Shown: positions 4,308 through 35,706 of the stretch, one piece after another
Numbering within the stretch: the stretch's first letter is position 1
Layout: each line of letters begins with the position of its first letter
NCBI RefSeq assembly: GCF_039525035.1
Contig: NZ_BAAAHE010000044.1
Span: 1 to 64,000, forward strand
DNA from: Sporichthya brevicatena
Lineage (GTDB): Bacteria; Actinomycetota; Actinomycetes; Sporichthyales; Sporichthyaceae
Direction: 5' to 3'
DNA length: 64,000 bases
Program-made: the position numbers and the translations under genes
The notes under the pieces: generated by a model
What the model was told of the DNA's origin: nothing
The model's input: only the letters and a program-made list of their open reading frames with translations
Databases searched by the model: none

Positions 4308-4820
4308 GTGCCACCCGTACCGCCTTCCCGCCGCCAGGTCCTCGCCGGCCTGTCCGCCGTGACCGCCGTGTGGCTGCTGCCCGGCTGCACCGGGGACGAC
4401 GGCGACGACGGTCCGGACGCCGGCCGCGCGCCGGATCCCGACCTGGACCTGCTGGCCCGCACCATCGCGGACAAGCAGAACCTGCTCGCCGCCTACGCCG
4501 CGACCACCACGCGTCACCCGGGGCTCGCCGCGCGGCTGGACCCGATGCGCGCCGACCACGCGGCCCACCTGGCCGCGCTCACCAGCTTCCGCTCCGACGT
4601 CCCGGTCCCGGAGGCCTCCGCGAGCGCCGTCCCGACCGCCCCGGCGGTCCCGGCCGATCCGCAGCGGGCCGTGACGGCGTTGGCGTCCGCGGAGCACTCC
4701 GCGGCCGGGCGCCGCGTCGGCCAGTGCGAGGCCGCCCGCGACCGGCAGCTCGCCCGGCTGATCGCCTCGATCGGCGGCAGTGAGGCCGCCCACACCGCCG
4801 TCCTGCGAGCCGGCTCATGA
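4308..4820 (+). CDS. Tat-type lipoprotein, ferritin-like partner of the next gene
   Basis: A 170-residue protein starting at GTG. The N-terminus has a twin-arginine-like SRRQVLAG motif, a short hydrophobic stretch and a lipobox LLPGC, so it should be a Tat-exported lipoprotein. A Gly/Asp-rich spacer follows, then a helical region (residues 45-170) with His and Glu pairs resembling the ferritin-like fold of its neighbour. The stop overlaps the next start by 4 bases (ATGA), indicating a two-gene unit. The function is unknown. No ribosome binding site is visible and translation may be leaderless. Confidence 0.75.
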   Translation: MPPVPPSRRQVLAGLSAVTAVWLLPGCTGDDGDDGPDAGRAPDPDLDLLARTIADKQNLLAAYAATTTRHPGLAARLDPMRADHAAHLAALTSFRSDVPVPEASASAVPTAPAVPADPQRAVTALASAEHSAAGRRVGQCEAARDRQLARLIASIGGSEAAHTAVLRAGS

Positions 4821-5278
4821 GCGCCGACCCGGAGGTCCTCGGCGAGGTGCTCGCCGCCGAGCACGCCGCCGTCTACGGCTACGGCGCCGCCGCGGCTCAG
4901 CTGTCCGGCATCAACCGCGCCGCGGCCCTGCAGGCCCTCGACGTCCACCGCGACCGTCGCGACCAGCTCCGCCGCAAGATCCTCGACGGCGGCGGCACGC
5001 CGGTCGAGTCGCAGGCCGCGTACCAGCTCCCCCGCCCGTTCACCGGCCTCGCGACGGTCGTCGACGTCGTCGCCGGCATCGAGCGGGACGTCGCCCTCGC
5101 CTTCGGCGCCCTCGTCGCCGCCTCCGACGGCGACGACCGCGGCTTCGCCGCCCGGGCCCTGCAGGACGCCGCGGTCCGCGAGTCCGCCTGGCGCCGCGAG
5201 GCCGCCCGCTTCCCGGGCCTCGAGGACCCGGGCCTCGCCCCCGAGGCCCCGACCCCCGGCCCGTCCTCCCCGTCCTGA
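4817..5278 (+). CDS. DUF4439 ferritin-like domain protein
   Basis: A 153-residue all-helical protein beginning MSADPEVLGEVLAAEHAAVYGYG. The EHAAVYGYG segment, the HRDRRDQL stretch and the AYQLPRPF region match DUF4439, a ferritin-like domain commonly encoded next to rimP-nusA in actinobacteria. Whether it binds metal cannot be judged. It has no signal peptide, whereas its upstream partner is a lipoprotein. It ends 20 bp before a long palindrome that lies between it and the convergent HAD gene. Confidence 0.8.
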   Translation: MSADPEVLGEVLAAEHAAVYGYGAAAAQLSGINRAAALQALDVHRDRRDQLRRKILDGGGTPVESQAAYQLPRPFTGLATVVDVVAGIERDVALAFGALVAASDGDDRGFAARALQDAAVRESAWRREAARFPGLEDPGLAPEAPTPGPSSPS

Positions 5279-5298: not shown

Positions 5299-5354
5299 GT
5301 CAAAAAAGGGTGACACCCCTTACTGCGCAGTAAGGGGTGTCACCCTTTTTTGAC
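5299..5354. terminator. 56-bp perfect palindrome, probable bidirectional terminator
   Basis: Bases 5299-5326 are the exact reverse complement of 5327-5354. The outer ends are A6/T6 tracts beside GGG/CCC, followed inward by a GTGACACC core and CTTACTGC. The A-tract, GC stem and T-tract on both strands suit a bidirectional intrinsic terminator, and it lies between convergent genes ending at 5278 and 5387. The same core recurs at 28448 and 34805. Confidence 0.85.
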
Positions 5355-5367
5355 AATGCGCGCCGGC

Positions 5368-5403
5368 GTCAGAGCCGGTGGTCGGGTCAGAGCCAGCGGT
5401 CGA
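5368..5403. repeat. 18-bp tandem duplication spanning the HAD stop codon
   Basis: Units 5368-5385 and 5386-5403 both begin GTCAGAGCC and continue GGTGGTCGG or AGCGGTCGA. Both contain TCA, the minus-strand TGA; the functional stop at 5389-5387 is in the second unit and the first carries a spare copy in the same frame. Confidence 0.65.
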
Positions 5404-6121
5404 CGAGGTGGAGGACGTCGAGGAGACGGTCGAGGACCGCGTCGGCCTCGCCCTGGACCGGGCCGCGCTCGTGGTCGCCGATCACCGTGAACGGGACGAG
5501 GGCGGCCCGCATGCCGACCTGCTTGGCGCCGTGGATGTCCTCGAACGGGCGGTCGCCGACGAACAGGACGCGCTCGGGGTGGGCGTCGACCGCGTCGGCC
5601 GCGGCGAGGAAGGCCTCCGGGTGCGGCTTGGTGCGGGCGATCTCGGAGGAGTAGACCGCGCCGTCGATGAGCTCGAGCACGCCGTCGCGGGCGAACCAGG
5701 CCTCGTGCTGGGCCCGGGGCCAGATCGTGTTCGACAGCACCCCGACGCGCAGGCCGCGGTCCTTCAGCCCGGCGAGGACAGCCGGGGTGTCCGGGTCCAG
5801 CGTGGTGGCGGGCTCCCACTCCCCCAGGTGTGCGGCGAGCAGGTCCGGGTGGTCGTCGAGTCCGCACGCGGCGAGGACGTCCGCGAAGCGGGTGCTCTCG
5901 CAGTCGCCGTTGCGGCAGCGGGACCACAGCTGCTCGTCGACCTCGGCGAGCCGGACGGCGAGTTCGGCGACGTCGTGGGCCGGGTCGACCGCAGCGGCGG
6001 CGGCCGCGACCGCCTTCCAGGTGCCCGGGATGTCCATCGGACGCCAGCGCGTCAGCGTCCCGCCCCAGTCGAAGATGACGGCGTCGAGCCCGGCGGGCGC
6101 CCCGTTCGGCGCGGCGGTCAT
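5387..6121 (-). CDS. HAD-superfamily hydrolase
   Basis: A 244-residue HAD-like phosphatase. Motif I is FDWGGTLT at residues 17-24, carrying the nucleophile Asp but Gly in place of the usual second (general acid/base) Asp. Motif II is VLSNT near residue 127, motif III is the Lys in ARTKPHPEAF, and motif IV is FVGDRPFEDIHGA. An alpha-helical cap lies between motifs I and II. The substrate is unknown. A GGGGAGGGG ribosome binding site supports the ATG. It ends at the convergent palindrome. Confidence 0.85.
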   Translation of the reverse strand: MTAAPNGAPAGLDAVIFDWGGTLTRWRPMDIPGTWKAVAAAAAAVDPAHDVAELAVRLAEVDEQLWSRCRNGDCESTRFADVLAACGLDDHPDLLAAHLGEWEPATTLDPDTPAVLAGLKDRGLRVGVLSNTIWPRAQHEAWFARDGVLELIDGAVYSSEIARTKPHPEAFLAAADAVDAHPERVLFVGDRPFEDIHGAKQVGMRAALVPFTVIGDHERGPVQGEADAVLDRLLDVLHLVDRWL

Positions 6122-23930: not shown

Positions 23931-24698
23931 GTGGCGCTGCACCAGATGATCGAGAGCTCCGAGTCGGTGGGCCAGCACGTCGCGACGGCCGCCGAAGCTG
24001 TGTTCGACCTGGTCTCGAATCTGCGCCGCACCACCGAGAGCCTCTTCGCCGAGGCGCACCACGAGGGTCGTCGGGTCGGGGTCGCGGACCTGGCCGCCAT
24101 CGACGCCATCGCGATCGGCATGCTCGGCGAGGTCGACGGCATCATTCCCGGCGCGGGTTTCATCTCCGCCCCGAACACCCTGAGCGACGCCCCGCGCTGG
24201 CTGCAGTGGTGGCAGCAGGGCCGGAACGGCAGCGCGTCGCGCCTGGTCGTCGAGCTCGACCCGAGCCGGGACCGCTTCTACGACTACGTGCCCCTCCCCT
24301 GGTTCGCGGTACCCGCCGCGACCGGCCGCCGCCACGTCACCGGCCCCTACGTCGACTACGTGTGCAGCGACGAGTACGCGCTCACCTTCACCGAACCGAT
24401 CTTCGTCAATGGCACGTTCGTCGGCGTCGCCGGCGCGGACGTCTTCGTCAACCGCTACGAGTCGCTGGTGCTCCCCCCGCTGCGGTCGCTCCCGAGCGCC
24501 GCCGCGCTGGTCAACACCCAGGGCCGGGTGATCGTGTCCAACACCGCGCGGCTCGTCACCGGCTCGCTGGTCCGCCGGCTCGACCTCGCCGGGTTCGTCG
24601 CCGGCGGCGAGGCGACCAGCCGCCAGCAGGGCCTGACCCTGCAGCGCTGCGGCGACGTCCCGATCGTCCTGCTCGTCGGGGACCGCCTCGTCGCCTGA
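23931..24698 (+). CDS. Soluble cache-domain (PDC sensor-like) protein
   Basis: A 255-residue protein without signal peptide or membrane segment. The central region (DRFYDYVPLPWFAVPAATGRRHVTGPYVDYVCSDEYAL is its core, residues about 105-145, given by key parts) followed by TFTEPIFVNGTFVGVAGADVFV matches double-cache/PDC ligand-binding domains. These usually form the extracellular part of chemoreceptors and kinases. Here the domain stands alone in the cytoplasm next to a GntR regulator and a polyamine/GABA operon, so it may bind an amine or amino acid and assist regulation. Its function is inferred from context only. Confidence 0.72.
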   Translation: MALHQMIESSESVGQHVATAAEAVFDLVSNLRRTTESLFAEAHHEGRRVGVADLAAIDAIAIGMLGEVDGIIPGAGFISAPNTLSDAPRWLQWWQQGRNGSASRLVVELDPSRDRFYDYVPLPWFAVPAATGRRHVTGPYVDYVCSDEYALTFTEPIFVNGTFVGVAGADVFVNRYESLVLPPLRSLPSAAALVNTQGRVIVSNTARLVTGSLVRRLDLAGFVAGGEATSRQQGLTLQRCGDVPIVLLVGDRLVA

Positions 24699-26600: not shown

Positions 26601-26731
26601 GGGCTCATCCTGTCTTCCACTCGCGGGAACGGCCAGCCCCGCCCCAACCGTTGGAGGGCCTGACAAACCCGGTGCGACCTGGTTGGCTGCCCCGAAGTCC
26701 CGGCATGACGACCCTGACGATGGAGAACGGC

Positions 26732-28441
26732 ATGGTTCAGCTCATCCCCAGCAGCGACCGTCCCATTCAGGAGGGCGTGCCCGCGTTGCACGCCGCGACG
26801 ATCTGCGAGGCGTTTCAGCTGACCGCGGCCGAGCAGGCCGACCGCGTCGCCCTCCGTACCCCCGACGACTCGATCAGCCTGACCTTCGCCGAGTACGCCG
26901 ACCGGGTGCGCCGGATCGCCGCCGGCCTCGCCGCCCTCGGGGTCGGGCACGGGGACACCGTCGCGCTGATGATGCGCAACCGGCCCGAGATGAATCTCGT
27001 CGACATGGCCGCGCTGCACCTGGGCGCGGTGCCGTTCTCGATCTACAACACCTCGTCGCCGGAACAGGTCGAGTACCTGTTCTCCAACGCCGGCAACCGC
27101 GTCGTGGTGTGCGAGCAGGCCTTCCTGGAGACCGTCCGCAAGGCGGGGACCGCGGTCGCGCACGTCGTCTGCATCGACGGCGGGGACGCGAGCACCTCCA
27201 CCCTCGACGAGCTGATCGCCGGCGGTTCGGACGACTTCGACTTCGACGCCGCCTGGCGTGCCGTGCAGCCGGACGACGTGCTGACGCTGATCTACACCTC
27301 AGGGACCACCGGTCCGCCCAAGGGCGTCCAGCTCACGCACGCCGGCATGATGGCCCAGATCCGCGGCATGTCGGCGATGGCCCCGACGCCGGTCGGCGGG
27401 TCGATCGTGTCCTACCTGCCGTCGGCGCACATCGCCGACCGGTGGAGCCACCACTACCACTGCTCGGCGACCTTCGGGGCCACCGTCACGACGGTGGCGG
27501 ACCAGACCCAGCTGATCCCGGCGCTGGTCAGCGCCCGCCCGACGTTCTGGGGCGGCGTGCCGCGCGTCTACGAGAAGATCATGGCCGCGCTGCAGGCCGG
27601 CGGTCTGACGGACCCGGCCGCGCTGCCCGAGGAGGTCCGCGCCGGGGCGCGGGCGAAGATCGGCCTCGACCAGGTTCAGTGGTCGATCGTCGGTGCCGCC
27701 CCGATCGCGGTCGAGACGCTGAAGTACTTCGGCGACCTCGGGCTGCCGGTCCAGGAGGTCTACGGCATGTCCGAGACCTCGTGCTGCATGACCTGCGTCC
27801 CGGCCGACGACATCCGCCCCGGCACGGTCGGCCAGCCGATCCCGGGCTCCGAGATGGCCCTCGCCGACGACGGCGAGATCCTCGTCCGCGGGCCGCTGCT
27901 GATGAAGGGGTACCGCAACGACCCCGAGCGCACCGCCGAGGCGATCGACGCGGACGGGTGGCTCCACACCGGCGACGTCGGCGTCGTCGAGGACGGATTC
28001 ATCCGCATCGTCGACCGCAAGAAGGAACTGATCATCAACGCGGCCGGCAAGAACATGTCGCCGGCGAACATCGAGCAGCGGCTCAAGGCGTCCCACGCCC
28101 TGATCGGGCAGGCGGTCTGCATCGGCGACGGCCGGCGCTACAACGTCGCGCTGCTCGTCCTCGACCCCGACGCCGCCGCGGCCTACGCGAAGCAGGCGGG
28201 GCTGCCCGACTCCTCGGCGCGGACCGTCGCCGCCGACCCCCAGGTGCAGCAGATCGTCGGCGCCGCGGTCGCGTCCGCGAACGAGAAGCTCTCCCGCGTC
28301 GAGCAGATCAAGAAGTGGCACCTGCTCGACGTCGACTGGCTCCCCGGCGGCGACGAACTCACCCCGACGATGAAGCTCCGCCGCAAGCCGATCGCGGAGA
28401 AGTACGCCGACGTGATCGAGGCCCTCTACGCCGAGGACTGA
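26732..28441 (+). CDS. Long-chain fatty acid-CoA ligase family protein
   Basis: An AMP-binding enzyme of 569 residues with the ATP loop YTSGTTGPPKGV, PSAHIADRWSHHY, VYGMSETS, GWLHTGDVG and KKELIINAAGKNMSPANIE, the pattern of FadD15-like long-chain acyl-CoA synthetases. It would activate fatty acids for beta-oxidation or lipid synthesis. The ATG at 26732 has a GGAG site 6 bases upstream; an in-frame ATG at 26705 would add nine residues. It ends just before a palindromic terminator-like element at the convergent junction with the DUF1501 gene. Confidence 0.88.
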   Translation: MVQLIPSSDRPIQEGVPALHAATICEAFQLTAAEQADRVALRTPDDSISLTFAEYADRVRRIAAGLAALGVGHGDTVALMMRNRPEMNLVDMAALHLGAVPFSIYNTSSPEQVEYLFSNAGNRVVVCEQAFLETVRKAGTAVAHVVCIDGGDASTSTLDELIAGGSDDFDFDAAWRAVQPDDVLTLIYTSGTTGPPKGVQLTHAGMMAQIRGMSAMAPTPVGGSIVSYLPSAHIADRWSHHYHCSATFGATVTTVADQTQLIPALVSARPTFWGGVPRVYEKIMAALQAGGLTDPAALPEEVRAGARAKIGLDQVQWSIVGAAPIAVETLKYFGDLGLPVQEVYGMSETSCCMTCVPADDIRPGTVGQPIPGSEMALADDGEILVRGPLLMKGYRNDPERTAEAIDADGWLHTGDVGVVEDGFIRIVDRKKELIINAAGKNMSPANIEQRLKASHALIGQAVCIGDGRRYNVALLVLDPDAAAAYAKQAGLPDSSARTVAADPQVQQIVGAAVASANEKLSRVEQIKKWHLLDVDWLPGGDELTPTMKLRRKPIAEKYADVIEALYAED

Positions 28442-28447
28442 TGTGAA

Positions 28448-28466
28448 GAAAGGGTGACACCCTTTC
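28448..28466. terminator. 19-bp inverted repeat with the shared GGGTGACACCC core
   Basis: GAAAGGGTG (28448-28456) and CACCCTTTC (28458-28466) flank one A. It is a half-length version of the palindromes at 5299 and 34805 and also lies between convergent genes (ends at 28441 and 28487). Just beyond it, 28473-28486 is a separate 14-bp imperfect dyad, ACCGA-n-CG-n-TCGGT. Confidence 0.65.
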
Positions 28467-28486
28467 GTCACGACCGAACGGTCGGT

Positions 28487-29773
28487 TCAGGCGGTCGGGC
28501 GACGGAAGGCGCCGACCGGGCGGGGCTTGTAGTTCGGGAAGACCACCGACACCGCGTTCTGGCCGAGGCCGGCGCGCCGGACGAGAAACTCGGCGAGCAC
28601 GTCGCGGTAGTCGGTGGTCGCGGCGAGGTCGCCCTGATCGAGGTCGTCCTTGGCGAGGCCCGGCCAGCGGCCGTGGACCTTGCCGCCGACGAGCCCGCCG
28701 CCGGCGAGCAGCATCGCGTTGCCGTGCCCGTGGTCGACGCCGCCGCTGCCGTTCTGGCCGGCCCGGCGACCGAACTCGCTCATCGTCACGACGTTGACGC
28801 GGTCGAAGTCCTTGCCCAGGTCCGCGGCGAACGCGGCGATCGCGGCGGCGACCTGCCCGGCCAGGGCGGCGAACTGGCCCTCACCGGCGTTGCCGAGCGC
28901 GATGTGCATGTCCCAGCCGCCGATCTCGACCGCCAGCGCCGCGAGGCCGACGTCGGCGCGGATCAGGGCGGCGGCGTCGGCGAGCGCCGCACCCAGGGCG
29001 CTGTTCGCCGGGTAGGCGGTCGCGGGGGCACCCGCCTTGGCGCGCTGGGCGTTGATGGTGCCGACGGTGTCGAGCGCCGTCAGCGTCGCGACAGCGCTGG
29101 AGGTCTGCGGCGCCTTCGGGTCGCTGTGCAGTGCCCGCAGCGCCTTGGCCATGGCCGGGCAGAGGGTGTCCGGGCCGGCGAGGGTGAAGCTCGACAGCGA
29201 ACGCATCGTCAGGACGTCGCTCTCGCCGACGAGGTGACCGGGCCGACCGCCGGTCCCGAGAGCGACCGCTTCGAACGTGGCGTTGCGCCCGTTGACGCGC
29301 AGCACGCGGTCCAGCCACCCCGAGTGCACGTTCGTGCCCGGGGCCGACCGCTCGAGCTCGGCGGTGGCGTTGAAGTGGCTGCGGGAGGTGTCCGCGGACG
29401 CGACGGCGTGGACGAAGGAGAGCCGCTTCGAGTCCCAGAGCGGACGCAGCGGCGCGAGCGCGGGGTGCAGGCCGAACCGCGGGTCATCCGTCGGGATCGC
29501 GGTGCGCTGCGGCACGGCGATCGACGGTCGCAGCTTGGCGTAGTTCGGGTCGCCGACCGGCGGGACGAGCGAGAGCCCGTCCATCCCGCCGCGCAGCGAG
29601 ATCACGACCAGCACGGGGCCGCGGTGCGGGCCGGCCGCGAAGGCCGCCTGCGCCGAGAACATCGACGGCGCGGCGACGGCGGCTCCGGTCACGCCGATGG
29701 CCTGCAGGAAGCGGCGCCGGCTCACCGACCGGGCGCTCGTGCACTCCTGGCACTCGTCCGTGGGCTCGGTCAT
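28487..29773 (-). CDS. Tat-exported DUF1501 family protein
   Basis: A 428-residue protein with a twin-arginine signal (SRRRFLQAIGVTGAAVAAP) and the DUF1501 body: LVVISLRGGMDGLS, the alkaline-phosphatase-like segments GWDMH and MSEFGRRAGQNGSGGVDHGHGN, and a C-terminal DVLAEFLVRRAGLG. DUF1501 proteins are exported and often paired with DUF1800 proteins, as here, where the stop of the upstream gene overlaps this start by 4 bases. A sulfatase-like fold has been suggested for the family; the substrate is unknown. Confidence 0.9.
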   Translation of the reverse strand: MTEPTDECQECTSARSVSRRRFLQAIGVTGAAVAAPSMFSAQAAFAAGPHRGPVLVVISLRGGMDGLSLVPPVGDPNYAKLRPSIAVPQRTAIPTDDPRFGLHPALAPLRPLWDSKRLSFVHAVASADTSRSHFNATAELERSAPGTNVHSGWLDRVLRVNGRNATFEAVALGTGGRPGHLVGESDVLTMRSLSSFTLAGPDTLCPAMAKALRALHSDPKAPQTSSAVATLTALDTVGTINAQRAKAGAPATAYPANSALGAALADAAALIRADVGLAALAVEIGGWDMHIALGNAGEGQFAALAGQVAAAIAAFAADLGKDFDRVNVVTMSEFGRRAGQNGSGGVDHGHGNAMLLAGGGLVGGKVHGRWPGLAKDDLDQGDLAATTDYRDVLAEFLVRRAGLGQNAVSVVFPNYKPRPVGAFRRPTA

Positions 29774-33098: not shown

Positions 33099-33141
33099 TC
33101 TCGCAGCCGATCCGGGAGGCGTCGGCTCCAGGCGGTAGTTT

Positions 33142-33219
33142 GGGACCTGCGACTGGCGCGTTCACAGGCGGAGTTCACCGCCGGGGAGCTTGCAGTACGG
33201 GGCCGTGCGCCTGGGCTCC
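33142..33219 (+). promoter_or_regulatory. Probable ZTP (pfl) riboswitch upstream of glyA
   Basis: The leader contains the conserved pfl elements in order: GACTGGCG (33151-33158), a P2 hairpin GGCGG/CCGCC (33167-33171 with 33178-33182), GGGGAGC (33183-33189) and CGCCTGGGC (33208-33216) within a GC-rich P3 region. pfl RNAs sense ZTP/ZMP, signalling low 10-formyl-THF, and commonly control glyA. A small hairpin at 33233-33248 abuts the AGGAGG ribosome binding site, suggesting translational control. The assignment is from motif recognition. Confidence 0.85.
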
Positions 33220-33257
33220 GTGACCACCGAGGTGTGCCGAACGGCACAGGAGGACCC

Positions 33258-34513
<1,256 letters not shown>

Positions 34514-34514
<1 letters not shown>

Positions 34515-34795
34515 TGACGGGCACGCCGGCTCCTCGCACCGCCGAGGAGCGGGAGGCGCTCGCCCTGCGGGCGGAGATCTTCGAGGCGCTGATCGCCCTC
34601 GGCGACCAGACCGACGCCGTCCTCGCCCTCGTCCGTGCCGGTGCCCCGGACCTGCGGACGCAGGTCCGCACCCTGCTCGACTGCAGCGACGCCGCCGCCG
34701 AGCAGGTCCTGTTCAACCTGCGGGTCCTGCACCCCGAGCAGCAGGCGAAGTACCGCGCCGAGGCCGCCGAGCTCCGCGAACTTCTCGACGCCTGA
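34514..34795 (+). CDS. Orphan small protein resembling the GyrA/ParC exit-gate helices
   Basis: A 93-residue helical protein whose start overlaps the glyA stop by one base (TGATG). Its sequence follows the GyrA coiled-coil/exit-gate region segment by segment: RAEIFEALIALGDQTDAVLALVRA resembles the GyrA HILxGLxxALDxIDEVIxLIRA helix, and EQVLFNLRVLHPEQQAKYRAEAAELRELL resembles AQAILDMxLxxLxxLExxKIxxE. It lacks the DNA-cleavage and beta-propeller domains. It may dimerise or bind gyrase, but this rests on remembered family patterns. It is co-transcribed with glyA and ends before the palindrome. Confidence 0.6.
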
Positions 34796-34804
34796 CCTGT
34801 GCGA

Positions 34805-34852
34805 AAAAAGGGTGACACCCCTTACTCGTGAGTAAGGGGTGTCACCCTTTTT
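34805..34852. terminator. 48-bp palindrome, probable bidirectional terminator
   Basis: Arms 34805-34827 and 34830-34852 are perfectly complementary (23 bp) around GT. The sequence is A5-GGGTGACACCCC-TTACTC and its complement, nearly identical to the 5299 palindrome apart from the centre. It lies between convergent genes ending at 34795 and 34861, with A and T tracts on both sides. Confidence 0.85.
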
Positions 34853-34860
34853 CGACGGCG

Positions 34861-35706
34861 CTACGGCGTCGGGTCGACGAAGAACGAGAGCAGCAGCCAG
34901 CAGATCGGGGCGGCGATCAGGAGCGAGTCGAGGCGGTCCATGATGCCGCCGTGGCCGGGGAGCAGCGTCCCCATGTCCTTGACGCCGATGTCGCGCTTGA
35001 GCACCGACTCCCCCAGGTCCCCGACCGTCGCGGCGACGGCCAGGGCGAGGCCGAGCAGGGCGCCCTTCCAGGCGGCGTCGTCCATCAGCGTCGCCATGCA
35101 GATCGCGCCGCCGGCGGCGCAGCCGATCAGCGAGCCCGCCATGCCCTCCCACGACTTCTTCGGGGAGATGCGCGGCGCCATCGGGTGTTTGCCGAACAGC
35201 ACCCCGGCGGCGTAGCCACCGACGTCGTTGCAGACCACGACGAGGATGAACGTCGCCACCCGCTCGGCCCCGTCGTTCGGTGCCGCGACCATGAGGATCG
35301 CGAAGCCGGCGAGGAACGGCAGGTAGACGCTGGTGAAGACACCGGCGGTGACGTCGCGGACGAAGCCGTCAGGCCCCTCCGCGATCCGCCAGCCGATGAC
35401 CCCGAGCACGGTCAGCAGCAGCCCGACCATGAGCGACTCGGTCCCGGCCTCGTAGGCAGCCGCGAGCATCGCGACCGTGCCGATGCCGAGCGGCACGACC
35501 GGGATCTTGACCCCCGTGGTGGCGAGGGCGTTGCCGAACTCCCAGAGCGCGATGAGGATCGCGACGGCCACGACGCCGACGAAGATCGCCGGCTCGAAGA
35601 TCAGCGACGCCGTGGCGATCGAGCCCATGCCGACGCCCACGCCGATGGCAGCGGGCAGGTTGCGCCCGGCCCGGCTCTTCTTCGGCTCCTCGGTCGCCGC
35701 GGTCAC
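34861..35706 (-). CDS. cdsA: Phosphatidate cytidylyltransferase
   Basis: Makes CDP-diacylglycerol, the precursor of phospholipids. The 281-residue membrane protein has about eight hydrophobic segments and the C-terminal family signature: PRISPKKSWEG, GDLGESVLKRDIGVKD and LPGHGGIMDRLDSL, with the catalytic acidic residues. It is the last gene of the rpsB-tsf-pyrH-frr-cdsA group and ends at the palindrome. Confidence 0.95.
   Translation of the reverse strand: MTAATEEPKKSRAGRNLPAAIGVGVGMGSIATASLIFEPAIFVGVVAVAILIALWEFGNALATTGVKIPVVPLGIGTVAMLAAAYEAGTESLMVGLLLTVLGVIGWRIAEGPDGFVRDVTAGVFTSVYLPFLAGFAILMVAAPNDGAERVATFILVVVCNDVGGYAAGVLFGKHPMAPRISPKKSWEGMAGSLIGCAAGGAICMATLMDDAAWKGALLGLALAVAATVGDLGESVLKRDIGVKDMGTLLPGHGGIMDRLDSLLIAAPICWLLLSFFVDPTP

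What the first reader, a model, noticed from the sequence alone, without database searches (positions are those of the whole stretch)
5299..5354. Perfect 56-bp palindrome whose core is shared by three convergent gene junctions
The 5299-5354 element is a perfect palindrome with no spacer. Its outer A6/T6 tracts and GGGTGACACCCC core recur at 34805-34852 (23-bp arms) and, shortened, at 28448-28466. Three of the five convergent junctions in the window carry it and no other site was seen. Conservation of primary sequence, not just structure, is more than an ordinary intrinsic terminator needs. It could be a mobile palindromic repeat (REP/MITE-like) used as a bidirectional terminator, or a binding site for a nucleoid or termination factor.
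Basis: partly seen in the sequence, partly recalled or inferred. Interest (0 to 1): 0.68.

Follow-up and report, generated by a model that had tools for sequence, protein, structure and literature searches.

The report
One repeated palindrome ends many genes
In this high-GC actinobacterium (close to Sporichthya), nearly every recognisable classical "stop transcription" signal is a copy of one perfect palindrome, repeated roughly 100 times, sitting just past gene ends and readable from both sides; it is absent from other relatives, and jumping genes use it as a landing site.

Summary
The window has four (not five) convergent junctions; three carry the element and the fourth is only 21 bp wide. 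The own genome holds about 86 canonical full palindromes and 201 hits of AGGGTGACACC (reversed control: 1). A sister species has about 68 full copies. A third congener, the sister genus and 388 other genomes of the class show only background counts.

In 2.04 Mb with my own gene calls, copies lie a median 21 nt past a stop codon: 57 at convergent junctions (about 15% expected), 27 at co-directional ones, one weak divergent hit, none in coding sequence. By a strict scan, 55 of 57 hairpin-plus-U-tract terminators past genes in this genome, and 17 of 17 in the sister, are this family.

Stems are conserved; the apical loop and one tract position vary. At orthologous junctions the palindrome differs 4% against 18% at fourfold sites. 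Best reading: a dispersed, selectively maintained bidirectional intrinsic terminator, REP-like in layout but without RAYT or GTAG tag, and not a DNA uptake sequence. An ISL3 element and a second IS insert into it. Termination itself was not measured.

The parts
5299..5354 (.). Canonical long element: perfect 56-bp palindrome, two inverted cores joined by CTTACTGCGCAGTAAG
   Evidence: RNA fold 26-bp stem with 4-nt loop, -46.3 kcal/mol
5308..5318 (+). Left core GGGTGACACCC of the 5299 element
5335..5345 (-). Right core (GGGTGTCACCC on the + strand), inverted partner
5302..5307 (-). A6 tract = U-tract for transcripts of the minus-strand gene 5387-6121
5346..5351 (+). T6 tract = U-tract for transcripts of the plus-strand gene 4817-5278
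34805..34852 (.). Second long element (23-bp arms, centre variant TTACTCGTGAGTAA)
28443..28471 (.). Single-core element GTGAAGAAAGGGTGACACCCTTTCGTCAC; the sister species carries an ISL3 insertion in the orthologous copy
   Evidence: (-14.7 kcal/mol)
4817..5278 (+). Gene converging on element 5299-5354 (own gene call)
5387..6121 (-). Gene converging on element 5299-5354; 81% identical protein in a Sporichthya MAG
26705..28441 (+). Gene converging on the single-core element
28487..29773 (-). Gene converging on the single-core element
34514..34795 (+). Gene converging on element 34805-34852
34861..35706 (-). Gene converging on element 34805-34852

Best explanation
The palindrome is one copy of a lineage-specific, dispersed family of bidirectional intrinsic (Rho-independent) transcription terminators. 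The basic module is a hairpin core GGGTG(A/T)CACCC flanked by A- and T-rich tracts. The common form is an inverted dimer of this module, which gives a 24-28-bp RNA hairpin ending in about six U, readable on either strand, so that one copy can end both converging transcripts. The family was spread over the genome before this species and its sister separated and has since been kept by selection on the hairpin and the tracts. Shown: sequence, copy number, position relative to stop codons, base-pairing pattern, conservation at orthologous sites. Inferred: that RNA polymerase stops there, in both directions. Unknown: how the copies were spread.
For: Copy number: 103+98 hits of AGGGTGACACC against 1+0 for the reversed control; about 86 and 68 canonical palindromes in G000 and G001, 0 in G002. 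Position in 2.04 Mb: 57 convergent, 27 co-directional, one weak single-core hit in a divergent region, none of the family in coding sequence; nearest stop codon median 21 nt; convergent excess p 9e-20 and 2e-8, divergent deficit p 8e-10 in G000. Monopoly: past gene ends, a hairpin followed by at least 5 T of 6 is found 57 times in G000 and 55 are this family, 17 of 17 in G001, against 3 and 2 in upstream control regions; 8 of 8 A6/T6 runs in 372 kb lie at the element. Structure: in 77 aligned long copies the stem pairs are nearly invariant, while the pair that falls in the RNA tetraloop is not Watson-Crick in 21 and tract position 23 is unpaired in more than half. Orthologous palindromes differ at 16 of 400 bases (4%) against 18.2% of fourfold sites.
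Against: No transcript 3' ends were available. Stems of 24-28 bp are far longer than needed, and the exact primary sequence is kept across loci, which a pure structure requirement does not explain; common descent of the copies or a further constraint is needed. Copies were found by their core, so core invariance is partly by construction (the U-tract scan is the unbiased check). Gene calls come from a home-made codon-usage caller. Fourfold sites are only a rough neutral yardstick, and ten orthologous pairs are few.
Confidence: 0.86

Rival explanations
1. It is primarily a selfish mobile palindrome (REP or MITE-like); its place past genes only reflects where insertions are tolerated, and termination is a by-product.
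For: High copy number with subfamily ends that are copied beyond the palindrome (TTTCTTTTCCACAGG; 16 and 10 copies); singles, dimers, clusters and a 47-bp tandem array; three junctions occupied in G001 only; restricted to two sister species.
Against: No Y1/HUH (RAYT-type) transposase in any of five genomes, control positive; no target-site duplication or clean empty site of the palindrome itself was seen; in the junctions compared all canonical long copies are shared by both species and conserved above fourfold sites; the three unshared ones are non-canonical.
Confidence: 0.2
2. The core GGGTGWCACCC is the binding site of a sequence-specific protein (nucleoid or termination factor), which explains why the letters and not just the fold are kept.
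For: The core is an odd palindrome with a free A/T centre, the same in single, double and clustered forms, while the linkers between cores change as whole palindromes (TTACTGCGCAGTAA, TTTCTGGCGCCAGAAA).
Against: Cores occur only past stop codons, with A/T tracts, and not at promoters; loop and tract tolerance fit a hairpin; common descent would give the same uniformity; in orthologous pairs the core also collects changes.
Confidence: 0.12
3. It is a DNA uptake sequence that has been co-opted in inverted pairs as terminators, as in Neisseria and Haemophilus.
For: A short word repeated genome-wide and paired in inverted orientation to form terminators, as described for those genera (PMC1852404).
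Against: Copies inside coding sequence are absent apart from chance matches, and about 200 words is far below the roughly 1,000 or more reported for uptake signals.
Confidence: 0.02
4. Chance or composition artefact: three unrelated hairpins that look alike.
For: None found.
Against: 201 copies against 1 in the reversed control; background counts in relatives of similar GC content.
Confidence: 0.001

Closest known systems
Bidirectional intrinsic terminators (hairpin with upstream A-tract and downstream U-tract)
   Same: Hairpin, A-tract and U-tract, placed between convergent genes just past stop codons.
   Different: Ordinary terminators share structure, not sequence; here one sequence supplies nearly all of them. 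A-tracts are reported as virtually absent and U-tracts as weak in high-GC Streptomyces (PMC12207403).
Uptake-signal terminators of Neisseria and Pasteurellaceae
   Same: One short repeated word in inverted pairs forms a large share of terminators (about 55% contain the exact signal in Neisseria; PMC1852404).
   Different: Here copies outside terminators are essentially absent and numbers are several-fold lower, so there is no sign of an uptake role.
REP elements, GTAG and CGTC superfamilies (PMC3733652)
   Same: Extragenic palindromes at convergent and co-directional 3' ends, as singles, dimers and clusters, varying between species.
   Different: Perfect 50-56-bp dimers with A/T tracts; no GTAG tag, no RAYT gene.
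REP-targeting insertion sequences (PMC1525189; IS110-type IS, PMC11208160)
   Same: IS elements use the palindrome as target.
   Different: Here the target is the terminator family; the ISL3 element enters its A/T tract with an 8-bp duplication.

Membership tests
Bidirectional intrinsic terminator | GC-rich hairpin followed by U-tract on both strands | tested here: met
Bidirectional intrinsic terminator | Located past gene ends, enriched between convergent genes | tested here: met
Bidirectional intrinsic terminator | RNA 3' ends at the U-tract on both strands | not testable with these tools
   no transcript data held
REP element with RAYT (GTAG superfamily) | GTAG tetranucleotide at one end of the stem-loop | tested here: not met
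   ends read TTGACA, TTCACA, TTTTCCACAGG and others
REP element with RAYT (GTAG superfamily) | RAYT (Y1/HUH) transposase in the genome | tested here: not met
   PF01797 absent in G000-G004, control genomes positive
REP element, broad sense | Many extragenic palindromic copies, as singles, dimers and clusters | tested here: met
REP element, CGTC superfamily | Unpaired CGTC (or TGTC) tag at one end | tested here: inconclusive
   many copies start TGTC or CGTC, but the bases pair with the other end
DNA uptake sequence | Hundreds to thousands of copies, many of them inside genes | tested here: not met
   no coding copies beyond chance
MITE | Terminal inverted repeats with target-site duplication and empty sites | tested here: inconclusive
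   no clean empty site among about 16 element-bearing orthologous junctions

The most novel reading that the evidence does not exclude
In this lineage intrinsic termination depends on one sequence: a dedicated factor, or a sequence-sensitive property of RNA polymerase, recognises GGGTGWCACCC, so that a single repeat family has replaced individually evolved terminators.
Probability: 0.12. Interest if true: 0.85.

Novelty: new variant of a known kind. Interest (0 to 1): 0.6.

Why it matters
High-GC actinobacteria are thought to have few strong U-tract terminators. Two sister species have gained about 70-90 near-identical ones, absent in their relatives, which makes the origin and spread of terminators directly traceable. 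It also shows how a repeat can become the main terminator stock of a genome and a safe landing site for insertion sequences.

Tried and rejected
Plasmid and phage records have no match to the palindrome. Seven viral contigs share a 17-mer, but only within one conserved sequence of about 50% GC and without the palindrome. Rfam gives only a ZTP riboswitch in the window. The RAYT idea failed. Loss of Rho as a reason for needing intrinsic terminators failed: Rho is present in all five genomes. The uptake-sequence idea failed. The built-in terminator scan missed the palindrome, so I wrote my own. The IS-end fragment had no plasmid match. Literature searches found no report on Sporichthya repeats.

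Full report
What is there. The 56-bp palindrome at 5299-5354 is exact, and the related element at 34805-34852 and the one-core element at 28448-28466 are as described. My gene calls give four convergent junctions in the window. Three carry the element; the fourth, at 24698/24720, has 21 bp between the genes and no room for it. All A6/T6 runs in the window belong to the elements.

Whole genome. The window lies in a 5.2-Mb draft genome of 89 contigs (G000). AGGGTGACACC occurs 201 times there against once for the reversed control, and the canonical 38-bp palindrome about 86 times. A sister species (G001, one 5.5-Mb contig, median protein identity 95.6%) has 177 and about 68. A third congener has 4 and 0, the two genomes of the sister genus 5 and 8 hits of the 11-mer. 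In 393 genomes of the class no other is enriched; the highest others are about 20 in genomes of 6-10 Mb. The nearest named relative found by protein is a Sporichthya MAG; an order with a single small family fits Sporichthyales, but the organism name is an inference. At the junction orthologous to 5299-5354 that MAG has no palindrome after the stop codon.

Position. I called genes with a codon-usage model on 1.24 Mb of G000 and 0.8 Mb of G001. Of the copies with two flanking genes, 57 lie between convergent genes, 27 between co-directional genes, one weak single core in a divergent region, and none of the family inside a gene. The distance to the nearest stop codon has a median of 21 nt. Convergent junctions make up 15% of junctions and 14-16% of intergenic bases, but hold 41 of 60 and 16 of 25 intergenic copies. 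About 46% of the convergent junctions of 40 bp or more in the G000 sample carry a copy (41 of 90).

Monopoly. A scan for hairpin plus U-tract (at least 5 T in 6) past gene ends gave 57 sites in the G000 sample; 55 contain the core. In G001 it was 17 of 17. Upstream control regions gave 3 and 2. With a looser tract (4 of 6) the family still makes up 63 of 82 in G000. In 372 kb of contig C7 all eight A6/T6 runs lie at the element; in the G001 sample 6 of 13 do. Term-seq work reports weak U-tracts and virtually no A-tracts in Streptomyces (PMC12207403).

Anatomy. The unit is the core GGGTG(A/T)CACCC. One unit with flanking tracts folds as a hairpin with a 3-nt loop; two inverted units joined by a palindromic linker give the long form. 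Clusters of three or four units and a second linker type, TTTCTGGCGCCAGAAA, occur. In 77 aligned long forms the pairs of the stem are nearly constant. The second pair from the centre, which lies in the RNA tetraloop, is not Watson-Crick in 21 of 77, and position 23 in the tract varies freely. This is what a hairpin with U-tract needs, and less what a double-stranded palindrome as such would need. Because the alignment was collected by the core, the core columns are biased; a Hamming scan over the whole 40-mer shows the same picture, with changes concentrated in the centre, the central A/T of the core and the outermost base.

Evolution. Among junctions with reciprocal best neighbours in both species, 14 matched the core in both; one of these is an unrelated conserved match, which leaves 13. 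Five were scored as discordant, of which two are not family copies; the three real ones are non-canonical forms present in G001 only. Ten orthologous long copies differ at 16 of 400 positions, fourfold sites at 18.2%. The canonical copies thus predate the split and are kept. How they spread is open: subfamily ends such as TTTCTTTTCCACAGG, extending beyond the palindrome, point to copying, but no RAYT gene exists.

Insertion sequences. An ISL3-family element (PF01610, E 1e-68) sits in the sister species inside two copies, with 8-bp duplications CCCTTTCT and AAAAAGGG. One of these is the orthologue of the window's single-core element at 28448-28466. In G000 five left ends of this IS were found, four of them in the family's A/T tract. 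Since these tracts are the A/T-rich islands of a GC-rich genome, a plain preference for A/T-rich targets may suffice. A second IS end is fused to GTCACCC, half a core, at five of five contig starts. Its last residues and end resemble an IS110-family element, one of which lies about 15 bp from a canonical copy; the family of this second IS was not shown. REP elements are known IS targets (PMC1525189).

Verdict. The family behaves like a bidirectional intrinsic terminator in every test that sequence allows. It resembles REP elements in layout and uptake-signal terminators in principle, but does not meet the definition of RAYT-linked REPs or of uptake sequences. What would be new is that one repeat supplies almost all strong intrinsic terminators of a high-GC genome. 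Termination itself remains to be measured.

Noticed in passing
L200 (G001 3808547) and L201 (G001 4026486); window 28443-28471: ISL3-family IS inserted in family copies with 8-bp duplications; one is the orthologue of the window's single-core element. Five left ends in G000, four in family copies.
   Followed up: yes
L159-L163, starts of contigs C9, C11, C13, C24, C64 of G000: The same IS right end (..LYRLLEAGPNPA* CGGGACATAGGAGC) is fused to GTCACCC, half a core, five times out of five; possibly an IS110-type element with guided target choice.
   Followed up: partly
26 copies in G000 and G001, e.g. G000 C4:44153-44169: One subfamily ends in TTTCTTTTCCACAGG, which contains TTTTCCACA, a DnaA-box-like word that is otherwise almost absent in the sampled DNA.
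   Followed up: partly
G000 and G001 samples: Other repeated palindromes in the same genomes, e.g. GCCCTTACTCGCCCGACCGGGCGAGTAAGGC, AGATGACATCT with TGCACTGGAGATG, ACGTCAGCGGGATCG..GCTATAGC.., CTCATGCATGAG (mostly convergent).
   Followed up: partly
window 33139-33223 (+): ZMP/ZTP riboswitch (RF01750) upstream of the gene that starts near 33258.
   Followed up: no
L074, G001 985205-985355: Array of single-core units with a 46-47-bp period at a convergent junction where the sister species has a complex multi-core palindrome.
   Followed up: partly
ends of G000 contigs C6, C9, C13, C14, C24, C55 (L178, L182, L184, L185-L187, L189, L190): Shared contig ends starting at CTAG (CTAGGGCGTGTTGATCAAGT.., CTAGGACTCTCCTGAA..), probably further IS elements that insert at CTAG, often at a TAG stop codon.
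   Followed up: no
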